Shown here: in pieces, positions 2,449 through 44,292 of the stretch
Layout: every line of letters begins with the position of its first letter
Numbering within the stretch: the first letter of the stretch is position 1
Source: Arthrobacter sp. C2
GTDB lineage: Bacteria > Actinomycetota > Actinomycetes > Actinomycetales > Micrococcaceae
DNA: 64,000 bases
Direction: 5' to 3'
Assembly (NCBI GenBank): GCA_024207135.1
Contig: CP042428.1
Span: 3,348,001-3,412,000 of the forward strand
Position numbers and translations under genes: made by a program
The notes under the pieces: generated by a model
What the model was told of the DNA's origin: nothing
Database searches by the model: none
Seen by the model: the letters and a program-made list of their open reading frames with translations, nothing else

Positions 2449-4419
2449 CTAGCGCTCGCAGATTTCCTTGATCTCAGCGATGCAGGGCTCGTTCTGCAGG
2501 CTGGTGGTGTCGCCCAGGGTGCTGCCCTCGAAGAGCTGGGTCAGCAGCCGGCGCATGATCTTGCCCGAGCGGGTCTTGGGAACGTCGGGCACGAAGACGA
2601 TCTCTCGCGGCTTGGCGATGGGACCGATCTGCGTTGCCACGTGGTTGCGCAGCTCGGTGGTGAGGGCCTGCTGCCTGGCCAGCGCCTCGCCGGACAGGTC
2701 CGTTCCCACCACCGACTTGTCGAAGGGCACCACGAACGCGGTGGCCGCGTGGCCGGTTTTCGCGTCGCTGGTCGGGCAGACCCCGGCCTCGACGACCGCC
2801 GGGTGGGTGACCAGCGCGGATTCGATCTCGATGGTCGAAAGCCGGTGCCCGGAGATGTTGATGACGTCGTCGGTCCGGCCCAGGATCCAGATGTCCCCGT
2901 CCGCATCGAAGCGTGCCCCGTCCCCGGCCAGGAACCAGCCCTGCTGCGCGTACTTTTCCCAGTAGGAGGTGTAGTAGCGCTCGGGGTTTCCCCAGACGGT
3001 GCGGGCCATGGCCGGACCGGTCCGGGTCAACACGATGTTGCCCTGCACATTCGGTTCCACGCCGGCTCCCTGTTCGTCGACGATGTCAACGGCTACGCCG
3101 GGCAGCGCCCGGGTGCCGCAGCCCGGCTTGAACGCGGTGTCCCCCTGCCGCGGGGAAAGGATCGTGGAGCCGGTTTCGGACTGCCACCAGGTGTCGACCA
3201 TCGGAATGCCGGCTTCGGTGTCGCGCCCCACCTGGCCGCGCAGCCAGCGCCATGCCTCCGGGTTCACGGCCTCGCCCACGGTTCCGGCCAACCGGATCGA
3301 GGACAGGTCGTAGTCGGCGGGGATCCCTTCGGGGAACCAGCCCATCAGCGAGCGCACCAGCGTGGGCGCGGTGTAGTAGCTGGTCACGCCGTAGCGGGCG
3401 ATGATCTCGAAGTGGCGTCCGGGGTGCGGGGCGTTGGGCACGCCCTCGTAGATGACCTGGGTGACGCCGTTGGACAGCGGCCCGTAGATCTCGTAGGTGT
3501 GCGCGGTGACCCAGGCCAGGTCCGCGGTGCACCAGTGGACATCGTTTTCCCGCTGCGCGGGGTCCGGATGGGCGAAGAGGAACTCGTGGCTCCAGGAGGC
3601 CTGCGTCAGGTAGCCCCCGGTGGTGTGGACCAGGCCCTTGGGCTGGCCGGTGGTGCCGGAGGTGTACATGATGAACAACGGGGTCTCGGCGTCGAAGGCC
3701 TCGGGGGAGTGCTCCGTGCTCGCCGTGTCGACGGTCTCGTGCCACCACACGTCCCGGCCTTCGGTCCAGGCGATCTCGTTCCCGGTGCGCCGGAGCACCA
3801 GCACGTGTTCGATGCTGTTCTCCCCGGAAACCGCGGCATCGGCGTTGTCCTTGACCGGCACGGCCTCGCCGCGGCGGAACTGCCCATCGGTGGTGACCAG
3901 CAGCTTCGCGCCGGTGTCCTCGACGCGGAATCTTAGCGCCTCGGCGGAAAAGCCGCCGAAGACCAGCGAGTGCACCGCGCCGACGCGTGCGCAGGCCAGG
4001 GTGATCACCACGGTTTCCACGAGAACGGGCAGGTAGATGACCACGCGGTCGCCCTTGCCCACGCCCAGGGAAAGCAGCGCGTTCGCGGCCCGGGACACCC
4101 GGTCCTGCAGGTCCTGGTAGGTGACGGTGGTCCTGTCGCCGGGCTCGCCCTCGAAGTGCAGGGCGACCTTGTCGCCGCGCCCGGCTTCCACGTGGCGGTC
4201 CACGCAGTTGTAGGCGGCGTTGAGCTTGCCGCCCTCAAACCAGCGAAGCTCGGGCCCGCGCCGGGCCTCGGCATCGACACCGGTGCTCGAGTGGATGGTG
4301 TGCCAGTCCTCGGACCAGCTCAGGCGCCGTGCCGCGGCATCCCAGAACGCGAGGCGTTCGTCTTCGGTCCAGGTTGCTTCGACGGTCGTGCCGGCAGCGG
4401 GGTACAGGGTTTCAGTCAT
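2449..4419 (-). CDS. acs: acetyl-CoA synthetase (AMP-forming)
   Basis: Converts acetate, ATP and CoA to acetyl-CoA through an acetyl-AMP intermediate in the cytoplasm. The 656 residues match the usual Acs length. Visible motifs are the CoA/nucleotide-region signature VGAVHSLVFGGFSAEALR, the P-loop YTSGTTGQPKG near residue 251, TWWQSETGS near 411, and the C-terminal KTRSGKIMRR near 615, whose lysine is the acylation switch of this family. The start MTETLYPAAG is preceded by GGAG. Longer upstream frames overlap the symporter gene and lack family similarity. It lies 115 bases behind the symporter gene on the same strand with no clear terminator between, so it may be partly co-transcribed with the S-box-controlled osmC-symporter pair. 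Propionate as the preferred substrate cannot be excluded. Confidence 0.9.
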   Translation of the reverse strand: MTETLYPAAGTTVEATWTEDERLAFWDAAARRLSWSEDWHTIHSSTGVDAEARRGPELRWFEGGKLNAAYNCVDRHVEAGRGDKVALHFEGEPGDRTTVTYQDLQDRVSRAANALLSLGVGKGDRVVIYLPVLVETVVITLACARVGAVHSLVFGGFSAEALRFRVEDTGAKLLVTTDGQFRRGEAVPVKDNADAAVSGENSIEHVLVLRRTGNEIAWTEGRDVWWHETVDTASTEHSPEAFDAETPLFIMYTSGTTGQPKGLVHTTGGYLTQASWSHEFLFAHPDPAQRENDVHWCTADLAWVTAHTYEIYGPLSNGVTQVIYEGVPNAPHPGRHFEIIARYGVTSYYTAPTLVRSLMGWFPEGIPADYDLSSIRLAGTVGEAVNPEAWRWLRGQVGRDTEAGIPMVDTWWQSETGSTILSPRQGDTAFKPGCGTRALPGVAVDIVDEQGAGVEPNVQGNIVLTRTGPAMARTVWGNPERYYTSYWEKYAQQGWFLAGDGARFDADGDIWILGRTDDVINISGHRLSTIEIESALVTHPAVVEAGVCPTSDAKTGHAATAFVVPFDKSVVGTDLSGEALARQQALTTELRNHVATQIGPIAKPREIVFVPDVPKTRSGKIMRRLLTQLFEGSTLGDTTSLQNEPCIAEIKEICER

Positions 4420-4534
4420 TGTTTTTCTCCATTGCTCCTGGCAGTGGCACTTCGCCGCTCGAATGTTGCCGCGGCGTCGCCGAACCAGGTCGCTTGGTCT
4501 CTCGTCATGGGATGTGGGTGACGCCAAGTGGGGA

Positions 4535-6187
4535 TTAGGCCACCGAAGCGGGTTCTTGGACCGGGGCAGTTGCATCGATCTCGATATCGGCGTCGGCATG
4601 TGGAGTTGAATCTTCCGTGCCGTAGAAAATCGCAAGCGATGTCAAGAACAGAATGATGAACAATGCCATCGCAACCAGACCGTGGGCGGCGAGCCAGCTG
4701 GCCGAGAGACCAAGGGCCACCAGGGCCAGGGCAGCAGCGCCGGCGAACCTCAAGGCCTTGCGGCGCCTGCCCTCGGCCAGAGCGAGTCTCCACCGGGTCG
4801 TGAGCAACGTGACGGCAACCAAGGTGAAGACGTTGGCCATCATTCCGACCCACACCGGGTGGGTGCCCAGGAAGAATTGCGTCGGCGACCAACCAGCTAG
4901 TTGGTTCCAGATGATGCCGGTGCTGAAACCTGTCACCATGGAGGCATAGACCGAGGCGCGGGTGGCCAGCGGCCAGAAGAAAACGGCCAAGACCGGTGCG
5001 AGGGTTGCACCGTTGCGCAGCGTCCAGGCCAGGACGTTCCACCAAGCCGATTGCTCGGTGCGAAGGATGCTGAAAATGATCATGAGTCCGGTCAGTGCAA
5101 CCAGCGACCATTGCGTGTAGCGAACCAGCTGCGCTTCGGTGGCCGTGGGGTTGATGGCGCTTCCCACATCGCGGCCCAGGGACGTGGCCCCGGAGAACTG
5201 GCACGGGCCCGCCCAGCCCATGGCGCAAGCCCAGACGCCCAGGAAGAAGACGCCCACCAGCGGTGCCGGCAAGACCTGTTCGATGTAGTGCGGGATCGCC
5301 ACCAATCCGAGGCGCTCGCCGGGCATGACGATGGCAGCCGAGGTGCCGATGAGTGCGCCGATGAGGATGAAGGGTATGCCGAATGCCGCCGCCGTGTAGA
5401 GACCCTTTTGGCCGTCCTCGGGAGTGCGGCATGAAAGGGTCATCTGGAATGCGGCCTGGGCCAGCGGAACGTTCACGATGAAGGTGCCGAACCACGCGAC
5501 GATCAGGGAGATCCCCGCATTTCCGGGATCGAACATCTGCGGGTTGGTCTCAGCAAAGTCCCGCAGTCCAGAGATTCCGGGCTTGGCAAGGACGGCGTAG
5601 GCGCCCACGATCAGCATGCCCACGAAGACGATGCAGTTCATGGTCTGGTTGAACGCCACCGAACGCATGCCGCCGGACCACAGGAACACGAGCAGCAGCA
5701 GGGCCGTGACGATGACCGCCAGATGCAGGTTCAAGCCCGTGAAAGCGGTCAAGGCCGAGGCGAAGGCAATCGTGGTGGCTACCGACCACATCGGGAACGT
5801 GAAAGCGGTGATGACGCCCGAGATCCCCTTGGCGAGGCGGCCAAAGCGGTCACCAATGATGCCCGTCACCGTGACGACCAGCTTCTCCCGCAACGGCTTG
5901 ACCAACAGCAGCGCGATGAGAAGGATCTGCACGGTCTCGGCCACGCCGTACCAGAGCGCGGAGATGCCGGTGAGGTAGCTCAGCTCCATGATGGCGATAT
6001 AGGAAGAGCCCGAGAACAAGCCAGTGATGCAAAAGGCCACCGTCCACGGGCTGAAGGTGCGCCCCCCGACAAAGAAGCCGCTCGTCTTGCCCAACGCGCT
6101 GCGACGTTGGGCAAAGCGCCCGCCGAGGATCAGCAGGGCCGTATATGACACGGCGAGACCAATGGTCCAAAGACCTGCCGCGCTCAT
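4535..6187 (-). CDS. sodium:solute symporter (SSS) family transporter
   Basis: A 550-residue polytopic membrane protein of the sodium:solute symporter family with about thirteen hydrophobic segments. The family fold shows in GGRTFSPWTVAFCITGLFSG near the N-terminus and in WSGGMRSVAFNQ in the middle. The ATG at 6187 overlaps the osmC stop (ATGA) and has GGAG upstream, which implies translational coupling to osmC. The pair lies behind a SAM-I riboswitch, so the cargo is probably a sulfur compound or methionine precursor. That is inference, because the sequence does not show the substrate. An acetate permease role suggested by the adjacent acs is the main alternative. Confidence 0.85.
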   Translation of the reverse strand: MSAAGLWTIGLAVSYTALLILGGRFAQRRSALGKTSGFFVGGRTFSPWTVAFCITGLFSGSSYIAIMELSYLTGISALWYGVAETVQILLIALLLVKPLREKLVVTVTGIIGDRFGRLAKGISGVITAFTFPMWSVATTIAFASALTAFTGLNLHLAVIVTALLLLVFLWSGGMRSVAFNQTMNCIVFVGMLIVGAYAVLAKPGISGLRDFAETNPQMFDPGNAGISLIVAWFGTFIVNVPLAQAAFQMTLSCRTPEDGQKGLYTAAAFGIPFILIGALIGTSAAIVMPGERLGLVAIPHYIEQVLPAPLVGVFFLGVWACAMGWAGPCQFSGATSLGRDVGSAINPTATEAQLVRYTQWSLVALTGLMIIFSILRTEQSAWWNVLAWTLRNGATLAPVLAVFFWPLATRASVYASMVTGFSTGIIWNQLAGWSPTQFFLGTHPVWVGMMANVFTLVAVTLLTTRWRLALAEGRRRKALRFAGAAALALVALGLSASWLAAHGLVAMALFIILFLTSLAIFYGTEDSTPHADADIEIDATAPVQEPASVA

Positions 6188-6765
6188 GCGCTTGCTCCAG
6201 CAGCCACGGAAGTAGCGGCTCGTGGAGTGTATCCAAGTGCAATGTTGCAGGCATTTTCGGCGGAGCCGGGAACAAGCTGAGTGGCAAAGACCCAGTTTAT
6301 ATCCAAGTTCACCCCGGCAGCCTTGACCAGATTGATCGCCGGGCACCGGCGGTGGACCTGGTTCGTGAGTTCCTGCTGGGTTGCTGGGTCATCAAGTGGT
6401 GTCTCAACGTGGATTTCCAGTCGGTAGGAATGGAAGAACGGCGAAACATCTGCCGTTCCGGCAAACCCCCGGGTGTCTTGGGTGGCAATCGAGTATGTTT
6501 CCAAGGCCGAGAAATCGATCTGAAGCTCCTTTGCCACCTGTTCCACAACAACGCTGACGCATCCATTGAGGGCGCCGGCGATGAATTCCATAGGTGTCGG
6601 GGCGCTATTGGTTCCGCCCACCGCAACTGGTTCATCGATGTCGAAGGAAAAATCTCGGATTTCGACGGTTGTGCGCATCAAACCCTGCCAGGTTCCCTTG
6701 GCGCGGATGCGTTTGTTGTGAGGCCCAACGGCGGTGGTTGCAGCGGGCAGAGCGGCAGAAGTCAT
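6184..6765 (-). CDS. OsmC-family protein
   Basis: A 193-residue OsmC/Ohr-superfamily protein. Members of this fold reduce organic hydroperoxides with two redox cysteines. Both are visible here, in LNGCVSVVVEQ and RRCPAINLVKAAGV, and TNSAPTPMEFIAGAL is the usual helix lead-in. The ATG at 6765 is placed by a GGAGAG site that also forms the last bases of the SAM riboswitch P1 helix. It is the first gene of the S-box-controlled minus-strand operon and overlaps the symporter start by four bases. Many OsmC-like proteins beside sulfur genes lack a known substrate. A role in handling reactive thiols or sulfur intermediates is plausible but inferred. Confidence 0.85.
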   Translation of the reverse strand: MTSAALPAATTAVGPHNKRIRAKGTWQGLMRTTVEIRDFSFDIDEPVAVGGTNSAPTPMEFIAGALNGCVSVVVEQVAKELQIDFSALETYSIATQDTRGFAGTADVSPFFHSYRLEIHVETPLDDPATQQELTNQVHRRCPAINLVKAAGVNLDINWVFATQLVPGSAENACNIALGYTPRAATSVAAGASA

Positions 6766-6772
6766 GATCTCT

Positions 6773-6858
6773 CCATCGGACCTGGCGGTAGCACCGGCCT
6801 CAACGAGGTGGTTGCTGCGGCGTCATAGAGCCAGATCTCTCGGCCGCTCGGGATGGGT
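6773..6858 (-). promoter_or_regulatory. SAM-I (S-box) riboswitch ahead of osmC-symporter
   Basis: Read on the minus strand, P1 is formed by CCATC (6856-6852) and GATGG (6777-6773). Between them lie the S-box core elements GAGAGATCTGGC, the kink-turn-like TATGA, GCAGCAACC, and GGTGCTACCGCC. The GG that ends P1 begins the osmC ribosome site GGAGAG, so SAM-stabilised P1 should hide it. This favours translational control. The core is nearly identical to the copies at 7285 and 11441. Confidence 0.88.
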
Positions 6859-7284
6859 GTATGACCTCCATCAAAGTCGATGTGGCGTCACAGGAGCAAG
6901 CCCACCGTAATGTGACGGAACGTTCGATGAGACGGAATTTTGCGACCATGTTTCGAATGATCTGCGAACAGTTGCGCGTATTTCGATCATTCAACTTGTC
7001 GTGTATCGAGGTTGCCGGGTATGGGTCAAAGACGTCGAGCCAGGCGCGCCTGCCCCGGGATCCCGTGGACTTGCAGGCCAGGGTGCGCTTGGGGAATTCC
7101 GTGCAGAAGCGTCTAGCGGTCCTCCCGGCTCCGTCGAACGAATGGCTGGCGGAATGCCGGCGCGCCGGTACATCGCTCTTGCCGTGGCGGTCGGTGAATC
7201 GTGGTTTGCCCTGTGACGCACCCGTCAATTGTGACGAGCCGGGTTGTCACCGCCCGGAGGCGACGTGTAGAAATATGACCAACA
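6859..7284. promoter_or_regulatory. divergent promoter region between two S-box leaders
   Basis: About 425 bases separate the two back-to-back riboswitches and must hold both promoters. No gene is recognisable. Short CGTCA/TGACG elements recur (CGTCACA at 6886, TGTGACG at 6911, 7212 and 7230, CGTCA at 7223), some in inverted orientation, and could bind a sulfur regulator. I could not fix -10/-35 boxes. Confidence 0.45.
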
Positions 7285-7377
7285 ACCATCCAGAGCGGCC
7301 GAGAGATCTGGCTCGATGACGCCGCAGCAACCCCTCCCCTTAACTGGGCGGTAGGTGCTCACGCCAGAACCGATGGA
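7285..7377 (+). promoter_or_regulatory. SAM-I (S-box) riboswitch ahead of the first monooxygenase pair
   Basis: P1 is CCATC (7286-7290) with GATGG (7372-7376). The core contains AGAGCGG, GAGAGATCTGGC, CGATGA, GCAGCAACC and GGTGCTCACGCC, which match the SAM-I consensus order. The ribosome site GGAGAG (7375-7380) shares its first two bases with P1, and the ATG follows at 7386. There is no room for a terminator, so ligand binding most likely blocks translation initiation. Confidence 0.9.
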
Positions 7378-7385
7378 GAGAATTC

Positions 7386-8723
7386 ATGGCTGTCGAGTCT
7401 TTCAACGATGCACACAATGTCGAAGCGGATCCGGACATTTTCGGGGCCGTCAACCTTGACGCGTTCACCGGTAACACCCCTGCCAGGCACCTGCTCAAGC
7501 TCACCCCCGGAGTCCCCAAGGACGGGCGCTACGATGAACTGGCGGCGATCTTCCGCCCGGTATTCGCCAAGATCGCTGCCGGGGCCAGCGAGCGCGACGC
7601 GAACAGGACCCTTCCCTTCGAGCCTGTCGGCTGGCTCAACCGCGAGCGCTTCGGTGCCCTTCGCATCCCGGTGGCCGAGGGCGGCTTCGGGGCCAGCCTG
7701 CTGGACTTGTTCCGCCTGCTGATCGAACTGGGCGAAGCCGATTCGCAGGTCGCGCACCTGTGGCGTTCGCACATCGGCTTCGTGGAATCCGTGCTGCAAC
7801 TCGAAGACGTCACCCAGCGGCACCGCTGGGTCGAGCGCATTGCCGCCGGGCAGATCGTCGGCAACGCCTACACCGAGCGCGGCGGAAACCGGCTGGGCAC
7901 GCTGAACACAACCATCGCCAAGAATGGCGAGCGCTGGATCCTCAACGGCGAAAAATACTATTGCACCGGCACCATCTACGCCGACTGGGTCGCCGTCGCT
8001 GCGGCTCATCCGACCCGGGCCGGACGGCAGATCGCCGTGGTCTCCACCCAGCACTCCGGGGTCAAGATCTTTGACGATTGGAACGGCTTCGGCCAGCAGC
8101 TCACCGGAACCGGGTCGACCACGTTCGAGAACGTCCCGGTGGACTCGGTCCTTCCCGAGGAGCAGCAGATCAACGATCCTGAATCCGCGATCTTCCAGTT
8201 GGTGCTCCTGGCGGTCCAGGCCGGGATCACGCGCGCGGCACTCAACGACGTGCGTTCCGCGGTCCAGGCCCGCACCCGATCCTTCAGCACCGGAACAGGC
8301 GTTCCGGTGCGCGAGGAACCGCAGGTGCTGCAGCTGGTCGGGGAAATTTCCGGTACGGCGTTCGCCGTGGACTCCATCGTCCTGGCCGCGGTCGCGGAGA
8401 TCGAGGTGGCCCTGGCCGACGCGTCGCTGAGCGCGGCCGAGCGGTTCGCGGTCTGCGAGCTCTCGGCGGACCGTGCCCAGGCCATCGTGCAGCCGCTGGC
8501 GCTCTCCGCGGCGACCAAGCTCTTTGACGGTCTGGGAGCCTCGGCAACCGCCACGAGCTGCAACCTCGATCGGCACTGGCGCAATGCCCGGACCGTGGCC
8601 ACCCACAACCCGGCGATCTACAAGTCGCGCATCATCGGCGACTACGAGGTCAACGGCACGGCGCCCCAGCAGCTGAACGCCATTGGCGACGTGGGTGCCG
8701 CCCAGGCAACCGGCGTCCCCTAA
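7386..8723 (+). CDS. acyl-CoA-dehydrogenase-fold FMNH2-dependent monooxygenase (DszC/SfnB-like)
   Basis: A 445-residue flavoprotein of the acyl-CoA dehydrogenase fold, in the branch that includes DszC (dibenzothiophene monooxygenase) and SfnB/SfnC sulfur-acquisition enzymes. These use reduced flavin and O2 to oxidise sulfur compounds. Visible features are the N-terminal helical domain, the TERGGNRLGTLNTT and NGEKYYCTGT segments of the middle beta domain, and the C-terminal LDRHWRNARTVATHNP, which matches the DszC-type active-site motif. It is the first gene after a SAM-I riboswitch and is followed 80 bases later by a DszA/DmoA-like enzyme. It is 54 percent or so similar by eye to the gene at 16890. 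The actual substrate is unknown. Confidence 0.85.
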   Translation: MAVESFNDAHNVEADPDIFGAVNLDAFTGNTPARHLLKLTPGVPKDGRYDELAAIFRPVFAKIAAGASERDANRTLPFEPVGWLNRERFGALRIPVAEGGFGASLLDLFRLLIELGEADSQVAHLWRSHIGFVESVLQLEDVTQRHRWVERIAAGQIVGNAYTERGGNRLGTLNTTIAKNGERWILNGEKYYCTGTIYADWVAVAAAHPTRAGRQIAVVSTQHSGVKIFDDWNGFGQQLTGTGSTTFENVPVDSVLPEEQQINDPESAIFQLVLLAVQAGITRAALNDVRSAVQARTRSFSTGTGVPVREEPQVLQLVGEISGTAFAVDSIVLAAVAEIEVALADASLSAAERFAVCELSADRAQAIVQPLALSAATKLFDGLGASATATSCNLDRHWRNARTVATHNPAIYKSRIIGDYEVNGTAPQQLNAIGDVGAAQATGVP

Positions 8724-42582: not shown

Positions 42583-42628
42583 GGGCTTTCCTCACTTTGC
42601 AGGTCTATGTCTGTTGGTCCTGGCATGT

Positions 42629-42663
42629 GTTCTATATTAGAACGATAGGTTCTATAGTCGAAC
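42629..42663 (-). promoter_or_regulatory. two operator-like dyads 20 bp apart in the hydroxylase promoter
   Basis: GTTCTA-TAT-TAGAAC (42629-42643) is a perfect dyad. GTTC-TATAGTC-GAAC (42649-42663) is a second, weaker one. Their centres are 20 bases apart, so both face the same side of the helix. This suggests cooperative binding of a MarR/IclR-type repressor. Confidence 0.6.
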
Positions 42664-42730
42664 ACATGCTCGTGATGTAGAACTCTACGGCAAGGCGACG
42701 TGGCTCACAAGTGCGGGTGTCGGGCAACGC

Positions 42731-42760
42731 AAAAAACCCGCTCACCGTTAGGTGGGCGGG
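42731..42760 (-). terminator. Rho-independent terminator after the Fic gene
   Basis: CCCGCTCACC (42737-42746) pairs with GGTGGGCGGG (42751-42760). On the minus strand the stem is followed by six T residues (42736-42731). This is the most canonical intrinsic terminator in the window. Confidence 0.85.
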
Positions 42761-42767
42761 TCTCGCG

Positions 42768-42821
42768 GAACTCCAAATTTACTCCAAATCAAAATTTGGA
42801 TTTGGAGTAAATTTGGAGTTC
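42768..42821. repeat. 54-bp AT-rich palindrome directly behind the Fic stop codon
   Basis: Arms of 23 bases (42768-42790 and 42799-42821) pair perfectly around an 8-base centre. Each arm contains two copies of CTCCAAAT. The palindrome abuts the TAA of fic at 42822. Bases 42771-42820 match 44241-44290 at 49 of 50 positions. Confidence 0.9.
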
Positions 42822-44156
42822 TTAGGAATTGGGGGCGAGCTTGGCTGCCAAGGATTCGGTAGCCCTCCAAATGAAGGCTCGCCCCTTGCGGTGCTTCACT
42901 AGGTAGCCACGTTTCGTCAGGGCATCAAGATCTGCTCTGGCAGTTTGGTCGGTGACCCGATATCTGTGGGCAAACGACAACGCTGAGATGGACTCTTCCT
43001 CTTGGCGCGCCAGCTTCTCCAATAGATCAGCCTGCCTGAAGTTCAGCTCGTCTCCTGCATCGGCAAGCGCGGCTCGCACGGCCGCTGATTCTTTGCCCTT
43101 AGCGTTCAGGTAGGAATCCAGGTCGTTGAGAGCGCGGACAAAAACATCGAGCTGATAGTGAATGAAGTAGGTGAGATCTCCCTCGTCATCTTCTGTGAGC
43201 AGGTAAGCGGCACCATATTTAGCGGGGGCTTTCTTGAGAATCCTCGAGATCGTCACATACTCGCTTAACCAATACCCTTCCCGGAGCATAGACCAGTAGA
43301 ACAAGGTCCTGGCGCTGCGGCCGTTGCCGTCAGCAAAGTAGTGGTCAAAGCCCATCATGAAGTGAACGATGATTGCGCGTACCACGGGGGGGATGTAGGA
43401 CGCTTCGCCGTCGCTGGCGTTCGCAAAATCGCACAATTGTGCAAGCCGTCGAGGTAGTTCTTCCGCGGGCGGCGGGGCATGAACCTCGGTTTCGTTGGCC
43501 CAAACGGAGACTCGTTGGTGATCCGGTGTTTCAAGCCTGCCGGCATCATTTGGATCGTCGAGGGTCCCCTCGGTCAGGATTCTATGGAGTTCCAACACGA
43601 AGTCCGGTGACAAGGGTGACTCCGAGGAATCCTTGACGTGCTGCATTGCGACATAGTTGTTGACGATCATCATCTCGGACTTGTCTTGGGGGTCGCGCCC
43701 GGAATCCAGGAGGTCCATAGCGACTTTTCGCGAGGTAGAGGCTCCTTCCAGTTGGCTTGAAGTCACGGCTTCTTCCACGAGTGACCGGACTATGTAGCTC
43801 TCACGGTTCTTGGCTCCAAGGATTTGGTCGCGGCTGGCAATGCTGGCGCCTGCGCGTCGGGCGATCTCTTCGCTGAGTCGAAGCAGTCGATCGGTCATCG
43901 AAAACCAAAAGCGTGTGCCGTCCTTGTTGAAAAGTTCAACTTGGCGACGTTGTTGATTCCGGCGCAATTTAAGGGAAAGCCACCATTCCTCATGGTTGAG
44001 TCTTGGGGGCGGCGTCTTGTAGCGCAGCTGGTCCCAGTGGAGGTAAGCGCTGTCGTCCACCGGTGTGAGAAGTAATTCGTTGAGTTTCTTGGGGTTCTTC
44101 TTGAGCGTTTCGTTGAGTAGATGTGTGACGTCGGGCGCTGGCATGGGAAGCTTCAC
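42822..44156 (-). CDS. class II Fic-domain protein with C-terminal winged-helix
   Basis: A 444-residue protein that probably transfers AMP (or another nucleotide moiety) to protein hydroxyls. An N-terminal Fic-N region holds the self-inhibitory motif SSQLEGAS. The core motif FDHYFADGNGRSAR carries the catalytic histidine, the phosphate-binding GNGR and the following arginine. The last 100 residues (ALSFAHRYRVTDQTARADLDALTKRGYLVKHRKG) form a winged helix-turn-helix, suggesting DNA binding and autoregulation. GTG 44156 is the listed start, and ATG 44144 is possible. The gene is AT-richer than its neighbours and is bracketed by near-identical palindromes, consistent with horizontal acquisition. 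No antitoxin partner gene is visible. Confidence 0.87.
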   Translation of the reverse strand: MKLPMPAPDVTHLLNETLKKNPKKLNELLLTPVDDSAYLHWDQLRYKTPPPRLNHEEWWLSLKLRRNQQRRQVELFNKDGTRFWFSMTDRLLRLSEEIARRAGASIASRDQILGAKNRESYIVRSLVEEAVTSSQLEGASTSRKVAMDLLDSGRDPQDKSEMMIVNNYVAMQHVKDSSESPLSPDFVLELHRILTEGTLDDPNDAGRLETPDHQRVSVWANETEVHAPPPAEELPRRLAQLCDFANASDGEASYIPPVVRAIIVHFMMGFDHYFADGNGRSARTLFYWSMLREGYWLSEYVTISRILKKAPAKYGAAYLLTEDDEGDLTYFIHYQLDVFVRALNDLDSYLNAKGKESAAVRAALADAGDELNFRQADLLEKLARQEEESISALSFAHRYRVTDQTARADLDALTKRGYLVKHRKGRAFIWRATESLAAKLAPNS

Positions 44157-44236
44157 GAAGGACCTTCTAACTCAAAGTCAAAGTAGATATTTGGATTTGG
44201 AGTAATTCTAGCCTGAGGATATCGGACTTAGGTGCT

Positions 44237-44292
44237 CCAACTCCAAATTTACTCCAAATCAAAATTTGGAGTTGGAGTAAATTTGGAGTTGG
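44237..44292. repeat. second copy of the palindrome, upstream of the Fic gene
   Basis: Arms of 21 bases (44237-44257 and 44272-44292) pair around a 14-base centre. It differs from the downstream copy at one base in 50. A third, partial copy (ATTTGGATTTGGAGTAA, 44189-44205) lies between it and the fic start, in the likely promoter. Confidence 0.9.

What the first reader, a model, noticed from the sequence alone, without database searches (positions are those of the whole stretch)
42768..44292. Fic gene bracketed by two nearly identical 50-bp palindromes
A perfect palindrome abuts the fic stop (42768-42821). A copy differing at one base in 50 lies upstream (44237-44292), and a 17-base partial copy sits in the promoter (44189-44205). 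All are built from CTCCAAAT units. fic is AT-richer than its surroundings and encodes its own winged helix. Two readings are possible: operators for autoregulation by the Fic protein at both ends of its gene, or termini of a small mobile cassette. Either would be a novel organisation for a class II Fic protein.
Basis: partly seen in the sequence, partly recalled or inferred. Interest (0 to 1): 0.7.

Follow-up and report, generated by a model that had tools for sequence, protein, structure and literature searches.

The report
Fic gene bracketed by twin operators
A bacterial gene for a possibly toxic enzyme carries what look like the DNA landing sites of its own on-off switch at both ends, so it probably represses itself from both sides, and some related genomes without the gene keep a single landing site.

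Summary
In detail: two 52-bp copies, 51/52 identical and each a near-perfect palindrome, bracket a 444-aa class II Fic gene, with a third partial copy in the promoter. The genome has no other site of this word. It is not a local oddity. Homologues (36-91% identity) mostly carry promoter palindromes with drifted words, and in 14 of 31 loci a second copy of the same word lies at or within 90 bp of the stop codon (two of the 14 weak). That fits operators of the protein's own winged helix. Autorepression through a promoter inverted repeat is proven for one Fic-HTH protein, CccR (PMC9755527); a conserved 3' operator I did not find described. Transposon ends are unlikely: no recombinase between the copies, no repeat family, words that drift with each fic lineage. 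Yet sister genome G111 has one palindrome whose left flank matches the 5' copy and right flank the 3' copy, as deletion between them would leave. Seven further genomes without this fic hold a solo palindrome, six of them beside a gene that neighbours fic in relatives. New variant of a known kind. Binding, looping and toxicity are untested.

The parts
42822..44156 (-). fic: 444-aa class II Fic protein with C-terminal winged helix (GTG start, MKLPMPAP...)
   Evidence: ORF; Pfam Fic 2.8e-15 and HTH_DeoR 8.4e-5; start supported by the similar KLPMPAP-like start in close homologues
42768..42821 (.). 3' palindrome (proposed downstream operator), directly after the stop codon
   Evidence: same word as the 5' copy; recurrent 3' copies in homologues
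44237..44292 (.). 5' palindrome (proposed upstream operator), 81-136 bp before the start codon
44178..44205 (.). third, partial operator copy between the 5' palindrome and the start codon (17 nt at 44189-44205)
   Evidence: family D1; a site of the same word at the same distance in G022
44205..44210 (-). -10-like hexamer TAGAAT between the 5' palindrome and the partial copy; read by eye, also present in G022
   Evidence: sequence; the consensus scan listed no promoter on this strand, so weak
43743..43760 (-). class II inhibitory motif SSQLEG (residues 133-138)
   Evidence: sequence; S133, E137, G138 in the 90%-or-more list of alignment A1
43308..43343 (-). Fic motif HYFADGNGRSAR (residues 272-283)
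   Evidence: sequence; H272, F274, D276, G277, N278, G279, R280, R283 invariant in A1
42861..43040 (-). winged helix-turn-helix (residues about 373-432)
   Evidence: (374-427) and AlphaFold2 model H373-384, H392-399, H403-415, E419-424, E427-432
42731..42760 (-). GC-rich hairpin with T-run behind the 3' palindrome: probable terminator of fic; homologous sequence in G111 and in G190, which lack fic there
   Evidence: fold; text and alignment; not listed by the scan

Best explanation
The palindromes are compound operators for the Fic protein's own winged helix. Each has four copies of an 8-bp half-site: two in tandem 11 bp apart, mirrored about the centre. Fic bound at the 5' palindrome and the partial copy would shut its own promoter. 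The matched 3' palindrome most likely lets the same protein hold both ends of its gene, by a loop or as a roadblock, so that this potentially toxic enzyme is neither leaked nor read into from either side. As a by-product the two near-identical copies act as recombination points through which fic can be deleted, leaving one palindrome. Shown here: the sites, their conservation with drifting words, the recurrent 3' copy, the locus-specific pairing, the G111 junction. Inferred: that Fic binds them, that it represses, looping or roadblock, and the direction of change (loss rather than gain). Estimated likelihood: promoter-side operator 0.85, 3' copy bound by the same protein 0.65, deletion between copies in G111 0.65.
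For: (1) Promoter-side footprint: in 19 of 31 homologous loci no shuffle of 60 reached the dyad score of the upstream flank, and in 25 of 31 at most 3 did; in two of the 19 (G043, Aeromicrobium) the best dyad is a GC-rich hairpin, not an operator word. (2) Same word at both ends: match score 13 or more between the two flanks in 13 of 31 loci (12 in the palindrome; G827's is elsewhere) against 34 of 930 cross-locus pairs, most of these between close relatives or look-alike words. G043 and G797 add weaker 3' copies. (3) Same geometry with different words: half-site centres 11, 18, 29 and 40 bp apart in the window (CTCCAAAT, counted) and in G156; one search gives 11, 19, 30 and 41 for the 7-mer CTTCAAG there, which is the same spacing when that word is extended to the aligned 8-mer. 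(4) Concerted change: the linker between tandem half-sites is TTTA in all four arms here, TTTG in both arms of G111, TTAA in two and TTAG in one of three scorable arms of G022. (5) The site occurs nowhere else in the genome, as expected of a local autoregulator. (6) The 3' label lies in two separate clades plus G797 and is clustered on the tree: 5 changes against 9.8 shuffled. (7) CccR, a class II Fic-HTH protein, represses itself through a 46-nt inverted repeat in its promoter (PMC9755527, passages and discussion). (8) G111 junction: left flank 18.5 against shuffles 7.1 +/- 1.3, right flank 28.0 against 8.5 +/- 1.9; in the swapped pairings 47 and 110 of 300 shuffles do as well.
Against: No binding or expression data. 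17 of 31 homologous loci have no 3' copy, among them the three of g7, so it is not needed for this Fic in general. 6 of 31 upstream flanks (G113, G642, G1056, G881, G855, G771) are reached by more than 3 of 60 shuffles. 0 of 11 distant Fic genes in the same and neighbouring genomes has a matched 3' copy, though 6 have promoter dyads. Half-site spacing differs from CccR's (10 bp-N26-10 bp). The 3' copy starts within 15 bp of the stop in 9 of the 14, which also suits a cassette border. The G111 interval is a diverged allele (77-79% identical next to the palindrome, with 97-98% beyond), so the deletion is not seen within one clonal frame. In G113 and G283a the 3' copy lies before jetA and could serve that gene.
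Confidence: 0.6

Rival explanations
1. Homologous-recombination cassette: the palindromes are above all docking sites, and fic enters and leaves by recombination between a solo palindrome in the chromosome and one on incoming DNA. Their operator role is secondary or shared.
For: Solo palindromes in genomes without this fic: G111, G200, G151 beside purL and G211, G024, G052, G290 in genus g24. The purL-FAD monooxygenase interval holds fic in two orientations (own and G022 versus G156 and G168, 61% identical), a solo site (G111) or no site. The 3' copy often abuts the stop. fic is GC-poor.
Against: No recombinase between the copies (the rest of the genome was not searched for one). Own and G022 fic (85.8% DNA) are about as diverged as the neighbouring gene (88.3%), so that copy looks vertically inherited. 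17 of 31 loci lack the 3' copy. In G052/G290 only one side matches the fic-bearing locus. G368's solo site is beside unrelated genes.
Confidence: 0.2
2. The 3' palindrome is the operator of the next gene, so Fic also controls its neighbour.
For: The next ORF runs the same way in own, G022, G143, G113, G283a; the 3' copy lies about 190 bp before the FAD monooxygenase start and about 110-130 bp before jetA in G113 and G283a.
Against: In G156 the 3' copy faces the end of purL, and in G701, G572 and G732 the longest neighbouring ORF is convergent (ORFs not verified as genes). In the window a GC-rich terminator-like hairpin and a separate inverted repeat (42623-42669) lie between the 3' copy and the monooxygenase.
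Confidence: 0.1
3. The palindromes are RNA hairpins: a terminator or mRNA 3' structure, with the upstream copy a relic.
For: The 3' copy folds very stably as RNA.
Against: No T-run of its own; a separate GC-rich hairpin with T-run follows. The upstream copies lie in promoter regions, and the words agree at both ends.
Confidence: 0.04
4. Ends of an insertion sequence, MITE or REP-like repeat that happen to bracket fic.
For: Near-identical palindromes at both ends.
Against: Only these two copies in 4.56 Mb. No other plausible gene between them. Palindromes recur with fic in other genera with other words.
Confidence: 0.02

Closest known systems
CccR of Yersinia pseudotuberculosis (PMC9755527; search listings, outline with abstract, passages and the discussion section seen)
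   Same: Class II Fic enzyme with C-terminal HTH; large inverted repeat in its own promoter, shown there to be bound for autorepression; its authors could not find binding elements at the other genes that change
   Different: One promoter operator (10 bp-N26-10 bp) in the passages seen, no 3' copy mentioned there; T6SS-secreted effector; half-site spacing differs from 18/29/40 here
CbFic2 of Coxiella burnetii (PMC10628234; outline with abstract and 12 of 25 passages seen)
   Same: Class II Fic with C-terminal winged helix; DNA binding reported to drive dimerisation and alter activity
   Different: Random DNA was used; no operator defined in the passages seen; acts on host histones
SoFic (3eqx/3zcn; Sofic anti-phage paper PMC12249575, outline with abstract and two passages seen)
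   Same: Structural neighbour of the model; PADLOC SoFic profile matches at 3.9e-38
   Different: Far below NCBIfam's SoFic cut-off (19.7 of 550 bits); that paper reports a downstream small antitoxin gene (AS1) and its main text does not hold the word palindrome
Integron gene cassettes with attC sites (recalled)
   Same: Palindromic site abutting the stop codon; gene between two copies
   Different: No integrase between the copies; palindrome words differ between lineages; promoter apparently inside the unit
DNA-looping repressors with operators at a distance, such as DeoR, LacI, GalR (recalled)
   Same: Two or three like operators acting on one promoter
   Different: Here one operator lies beyond the far end of the regulator's own gene, 1.47 kb away

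Membership tests
Class II Fic proteins | Fic motif HxFxDGNGRxxR | tested here: met
   HYFADGNGRSAR at residues 272-283; H, F, DGNGR and the last R invariant in A1
Class II Fic proteins | N-terminal inhibitory motif (S/T)xxxE(G/N) | tested here: met
   SSQLEG at 133-138, N-terminal of the Fic motif
Class II Fic proteins | AMP transfer to a target protein | not testable with these tools
   no assay
CccR-like autoregulated Fic-HTH | C-terminal DNA-binding helix-turn-helix | tested here: met
CccR-like autoregulated Fic-HTH | inverted repeat in its own promoter region | tested here: met
CccR-like autoregulated Fic-HTH | protein binds the repeat and represses its own gene | not testable with these tools
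   no binding assay
CccR-like autoregulated Fic-HTH | dimer whose HTH spacing matches the operator | not tested
   only a monomer was modelled
SoFic anti-phage Fic | reaches NCBIfam SoFic equivalog cut-off (550 bits) | tested here: not met
   19.7 bits; PADLOC SoFic profile matches at 3.9e-38
SoFic anti-phage Fic | protects against phage | not testable with these tools
   only neighbourhood in three g24 genomes (Wadjet in G113 and G283, type I restriction gene in G143)
Transposable element or MITE | own transposase or many copies per genome | tested here: not met
   only fic between the copies; two copies in the genome
Integron cassette | attC consensus and a site-specific integrase | tested here: inconclusive
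   no integrase between the copies; the attC consensus is recalled and was only looked for by eye; no genome-wide integrase search was made

The most novel reading that the evidence does not exclude
The operator is also the attachment site. A self-repressing Fic gene travels between, and is lost from, solo copies of its own operator by host recombination, so that any recipient site already carries the sequence that silences the incoming gene. Solo operators would then be docking scars, and operator and protein would evolve as a matched pair per lineage.
Probability: 0.17. Interest if true: 0.78.

Novelty: new variant of a known kind. Interest (0 to 1): 0.52.

Why it matters
Fic proteins with an HTH end are widely distributed, and next to nothing is known of how class II Fic proteins are kept in check (both said in PMC9755527, discussion read). 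A natural series of Fic proteins with matched, drifting operators at one or both ends gives a ready test of Fic-DNA recognition and of why a self-repressor would mark the far end of its own gene. The solo palindromes give a sequence signature for finding where such genes may have been lost or might dock.

Tried and rejected
Rejected: IS/MITE/REP ends (copy number); RNA terminator as the main role; operator of the next gene as a general rule.

Led nowhere or was not followed: viral contigs (31 stretches matched a pattern, no relative by tblastn); phage records (2 records, the better 37.9% identical over 86%; flanks not examined); plasmids (15 records, all under 60% identity; flanks not examined); a fic at 1e-30 in the genus of G151 (0 of 10); pattern CTCCAAATNNNNNNATTTGGAG with 2 mismatches in the own genome (none, wrong spacing). 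One family hit of the 19-mer, G358, looks like chance; no long palindrome is visible there (output partly cut). Most DNA identities printed for purL are wrong because strands were mixed; I replaced them. In one search G771's start was probably placed inside its palindrome (score 22), so that row counts against me there. Covariation of recognition helix and operator word was listed, not tested statistically. Uniqueness in a whole genome was tested only for the window's own word and, in genus g24, for AACTCCCAA.

Rows dropped: from 35 loci, four were left out (G168, a split copy of the G156 type; G189 and G1017, partial; G412, start undefined). G113 and G708 were left out of the tree.

Paper searches: 71 of the held open-access library, several with capped listings (25 of 710, 10 of 2,210, 12 of 4,442); none of the titles and abstract starts listed described a Fic gene with operators at both ends. 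Subscription papers were not searched.

Full report
What is there. The window lies in a 4.56-Mb genome. Order along the minus strand: purL, a DUF3592-like ORF, a dihydrofolate-reductase-like ORF on the plus strand (these two names are recalled from the look of the sequences), 5' palindrome, fic, 3' palindrome, GC-rich hairpin, FAD monooxygenase. The palindromes are 51/52 identical. Each reads as two tandem half-sites ACTCCAAAT, 11 bp apart, mirrored about the centre (in the 5' copy one inner half-site has a mismatch); the facing half-site centres lie 18, 29 and 40 bp apart (counted; one search lists rounded positions). A partial copy sits between the 5' palindrome and the start codon, behind a -10-like TAGAAT also present in G022; the promoter scan did not list it.

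Protein. Pfam finds Fic (2.8e-15) and a DeoR-type HTH (8.4e-5). The inhibitory motif SSQLEG and the Fic motif HYFADGNGRSAR are intact and conserved over 26 sequences at 36-91% identity. An AlphaFold2 model (mean pLDDT 84.5) matches Fic structures, at modest TM-scores (0.48-0.56 for the best rows), including M. marinum 7cb8, SoFic 3eqx/3zcn, CbFic2 8cil and 7xux. Solved relatives by sequence begin with 4rgl at 2.9e-13.

Uniqueness. In the own genome the palindrome core occurs only at these two places. Over the 15 genomes held of the genus, the exact dyad occurs in 3: own and G022, beside fic, and G200, which has no Fic match at 1e-3. The control pattern, read backwards, occurs in 2 of the 15 (G126, G074), one place each. 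The 19-mer with 2 mismatches occurs in 8 of 395 family genomes, its backward control in 1.

Homologues. At E <= 1e-30, 12 of 395 family genomes have this Fic; at 1e-60, 11 of 396 in an order sample and 12 of 396 in a phylum sample, the own genome counted in each. Of 35 loci taken up, 31 entered the flank test. In the 200 bp upstream, 19 of 31 beat all 60 shuffles and 25 of 31 all but three or fewer. Downstream, 13 of 31 beat all 60, of which G677's dyad is GC-rich and not of the operator word. Flanks of one locus match each other at score 13 or more in 13 of 31 loci, against 34 of 930 mixed pairs, most of which join close relatives or similar words. One of the 13 (G827) is not in a palindrome. 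G043 and G797 carry weaker 3' copies. So 14 of 31 have the bracket, in several lineages: own/G022, G156, G143/G113/G283a, G283b, G043, G642/G701/G572/G659, G732 and G797. The words differ (CTCCAAAT, CTTCAAG, CTCCCAA, CTCCAAGT, AACCTAA, CTTCAAAT, CTCCTAAT, CTATCAA; chosen by eye, counted) but agree within a locus. The 3' copy begins within 15 bp of the stop in 9 of the 14 and 45-88 bp behind it in G283b, G642, G701, G572 and G659. On a tree of 29 proteins the 3' label (13 rows) needs 5 changes against 9.8 for shuffled labels.

Control. Eleven distant Fic genes (26-32% identity) from 6 of the 8 genomes searched (their HTH was not checked): 6 have promoter dyads, none has a matching 3' copy (best score 10). 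The bracket is thus a trait of part of this subfamily and not of Fic genes at large.

The locus in relatives. Own and G022: fic runs the same way as purL. G156 and G168: a 61% identical fic in the opposite orientation, with its own word; G168's copy is split by an insertion of about 2.5 kb. G111: no fic there, one palindrome. G200: one palindrome, no fic, no monooxygenase in the stretch. The other nine genus genomes: no palindrome of this word and no fic in the stretch, though G141 and G210 each have a different AT-rich 41-nt palindrome there. In G111 the left flank of the solo palindrome matches the left flank of the window's 5' copy and the right flank matches the right flank of its 3' copy; the swapped pairings are at chance. 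This is what deletion between the copies leaves, or equally what insertion of fic at a solo site would start from. Own and G022 fic are 85.8% identical in DNA beside an 88.3% identical neighbour, which points to old presence and later loss. A caution: between own and G111 the purL side is about 97% and the monooxygenase 98.2% identical, but the interval itself is 77-79% identical next to the palindrome with a sharp step. The two intervals are therefore diverged alleles, probably exchanged by recombination, and not one clonal frame.

Second genus. In genus g24, AACTCCCAA-N0..30-TTGGGAGTT occurs in 6 of 23 genomes, its backward control in none: two with fic (G143, G283) and four with no match at 1e-30 (G211, G024, G052, G290). 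G113 has fic but no exact match. The solo sites of G211 and G024 lie about 65 bp behind a type I restriction gene whose homologue neighbours fic in G143; those of G052 and G290 lie beside the gene that neighbours fic in G113 and G283a, but only that one side is homologous. G151, in a third genus, has a partly decayed solo palindrome beside purL and no fic of this kind. G368 has a solo palindrome next to unrelated genes. G111, G151 and G368 do have distant Fic genes elsewhere. In all, eight genomes without this fic hold a solo palindrome.

Mechanism. CccR shows that a class II Fic-HTH protein represses itself through a promoter inverted repeat and needs to dimerise for it (PMC9755527, passages). 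CbFic2 is reported to change activity on binding DNA (PMC10628234, abstract and passages). By analogy this Fic should occupy both its palindromes. What the 3' copy adds is not shown. I favour closing or insulating the gene from both ends, because the 3' copy is kept where the next gene is convergent (G156, with purL). The by-product is a pair of repeats through which the gene can be deleted.

Verdict. Real and conserved, mostly explained as autoregulation of a known kind. The second operator behind the stop and the solo palindromes are the new parts.

Noticed in passing
window 42623-42669: A separate inverted repeat (21-nt arms, 81% complementary) before the FAD monooxygenase; similar GTTCTA motifs stand before that gene in relatives, so probably that gene's own operator.
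   Followed up: no
L120:2907-2951 and 3106-8200: In G283 a third palindrome of the same word overlaps the stop of an unrelated 645-aa ORF, and 3'-end fragments of the gene next to fic recur at two more places near palindromes, with a HipA-like ORF (name recalled) between: the island looks built from repeated palindrome-linked pieces.
   Followed up: partly
L119 (G113) and L121 (G283a): fic lies directly before a Wadjet (JetABC) operon, with its 3' palindrome about 110-130 bp before jetA; in G143 it lies beside a type I restriction gene. Suggests a defence-island setting.
   Followed up: partly
L061 (G141) 1474-1514 and the G210 stretch L068: The same purL-adjacent interval holds a different AT-rich 41-nt palindrome in two other genus members that lack fic; possibly another self-regulated gene using the same spot.
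   Followed up: no
L073 (G168:C1:3354000-3362000): fic copy split by an insertion of about 2.5 kb between the parts matching residues 1-115 and 178-441.
   Followed up: no
L118 (G143:C36) 4409-4769 and 7936-8696: The end of the type I restriction gene is partly duplicated on both sides of the fic unit.
   Followed up: no
L050, L051, L054, L056, L057: Distant Fic genes share a promoter dyad of another kind (TACCAA...TTGGTA-like), probably their own operators.
   Followed up: no
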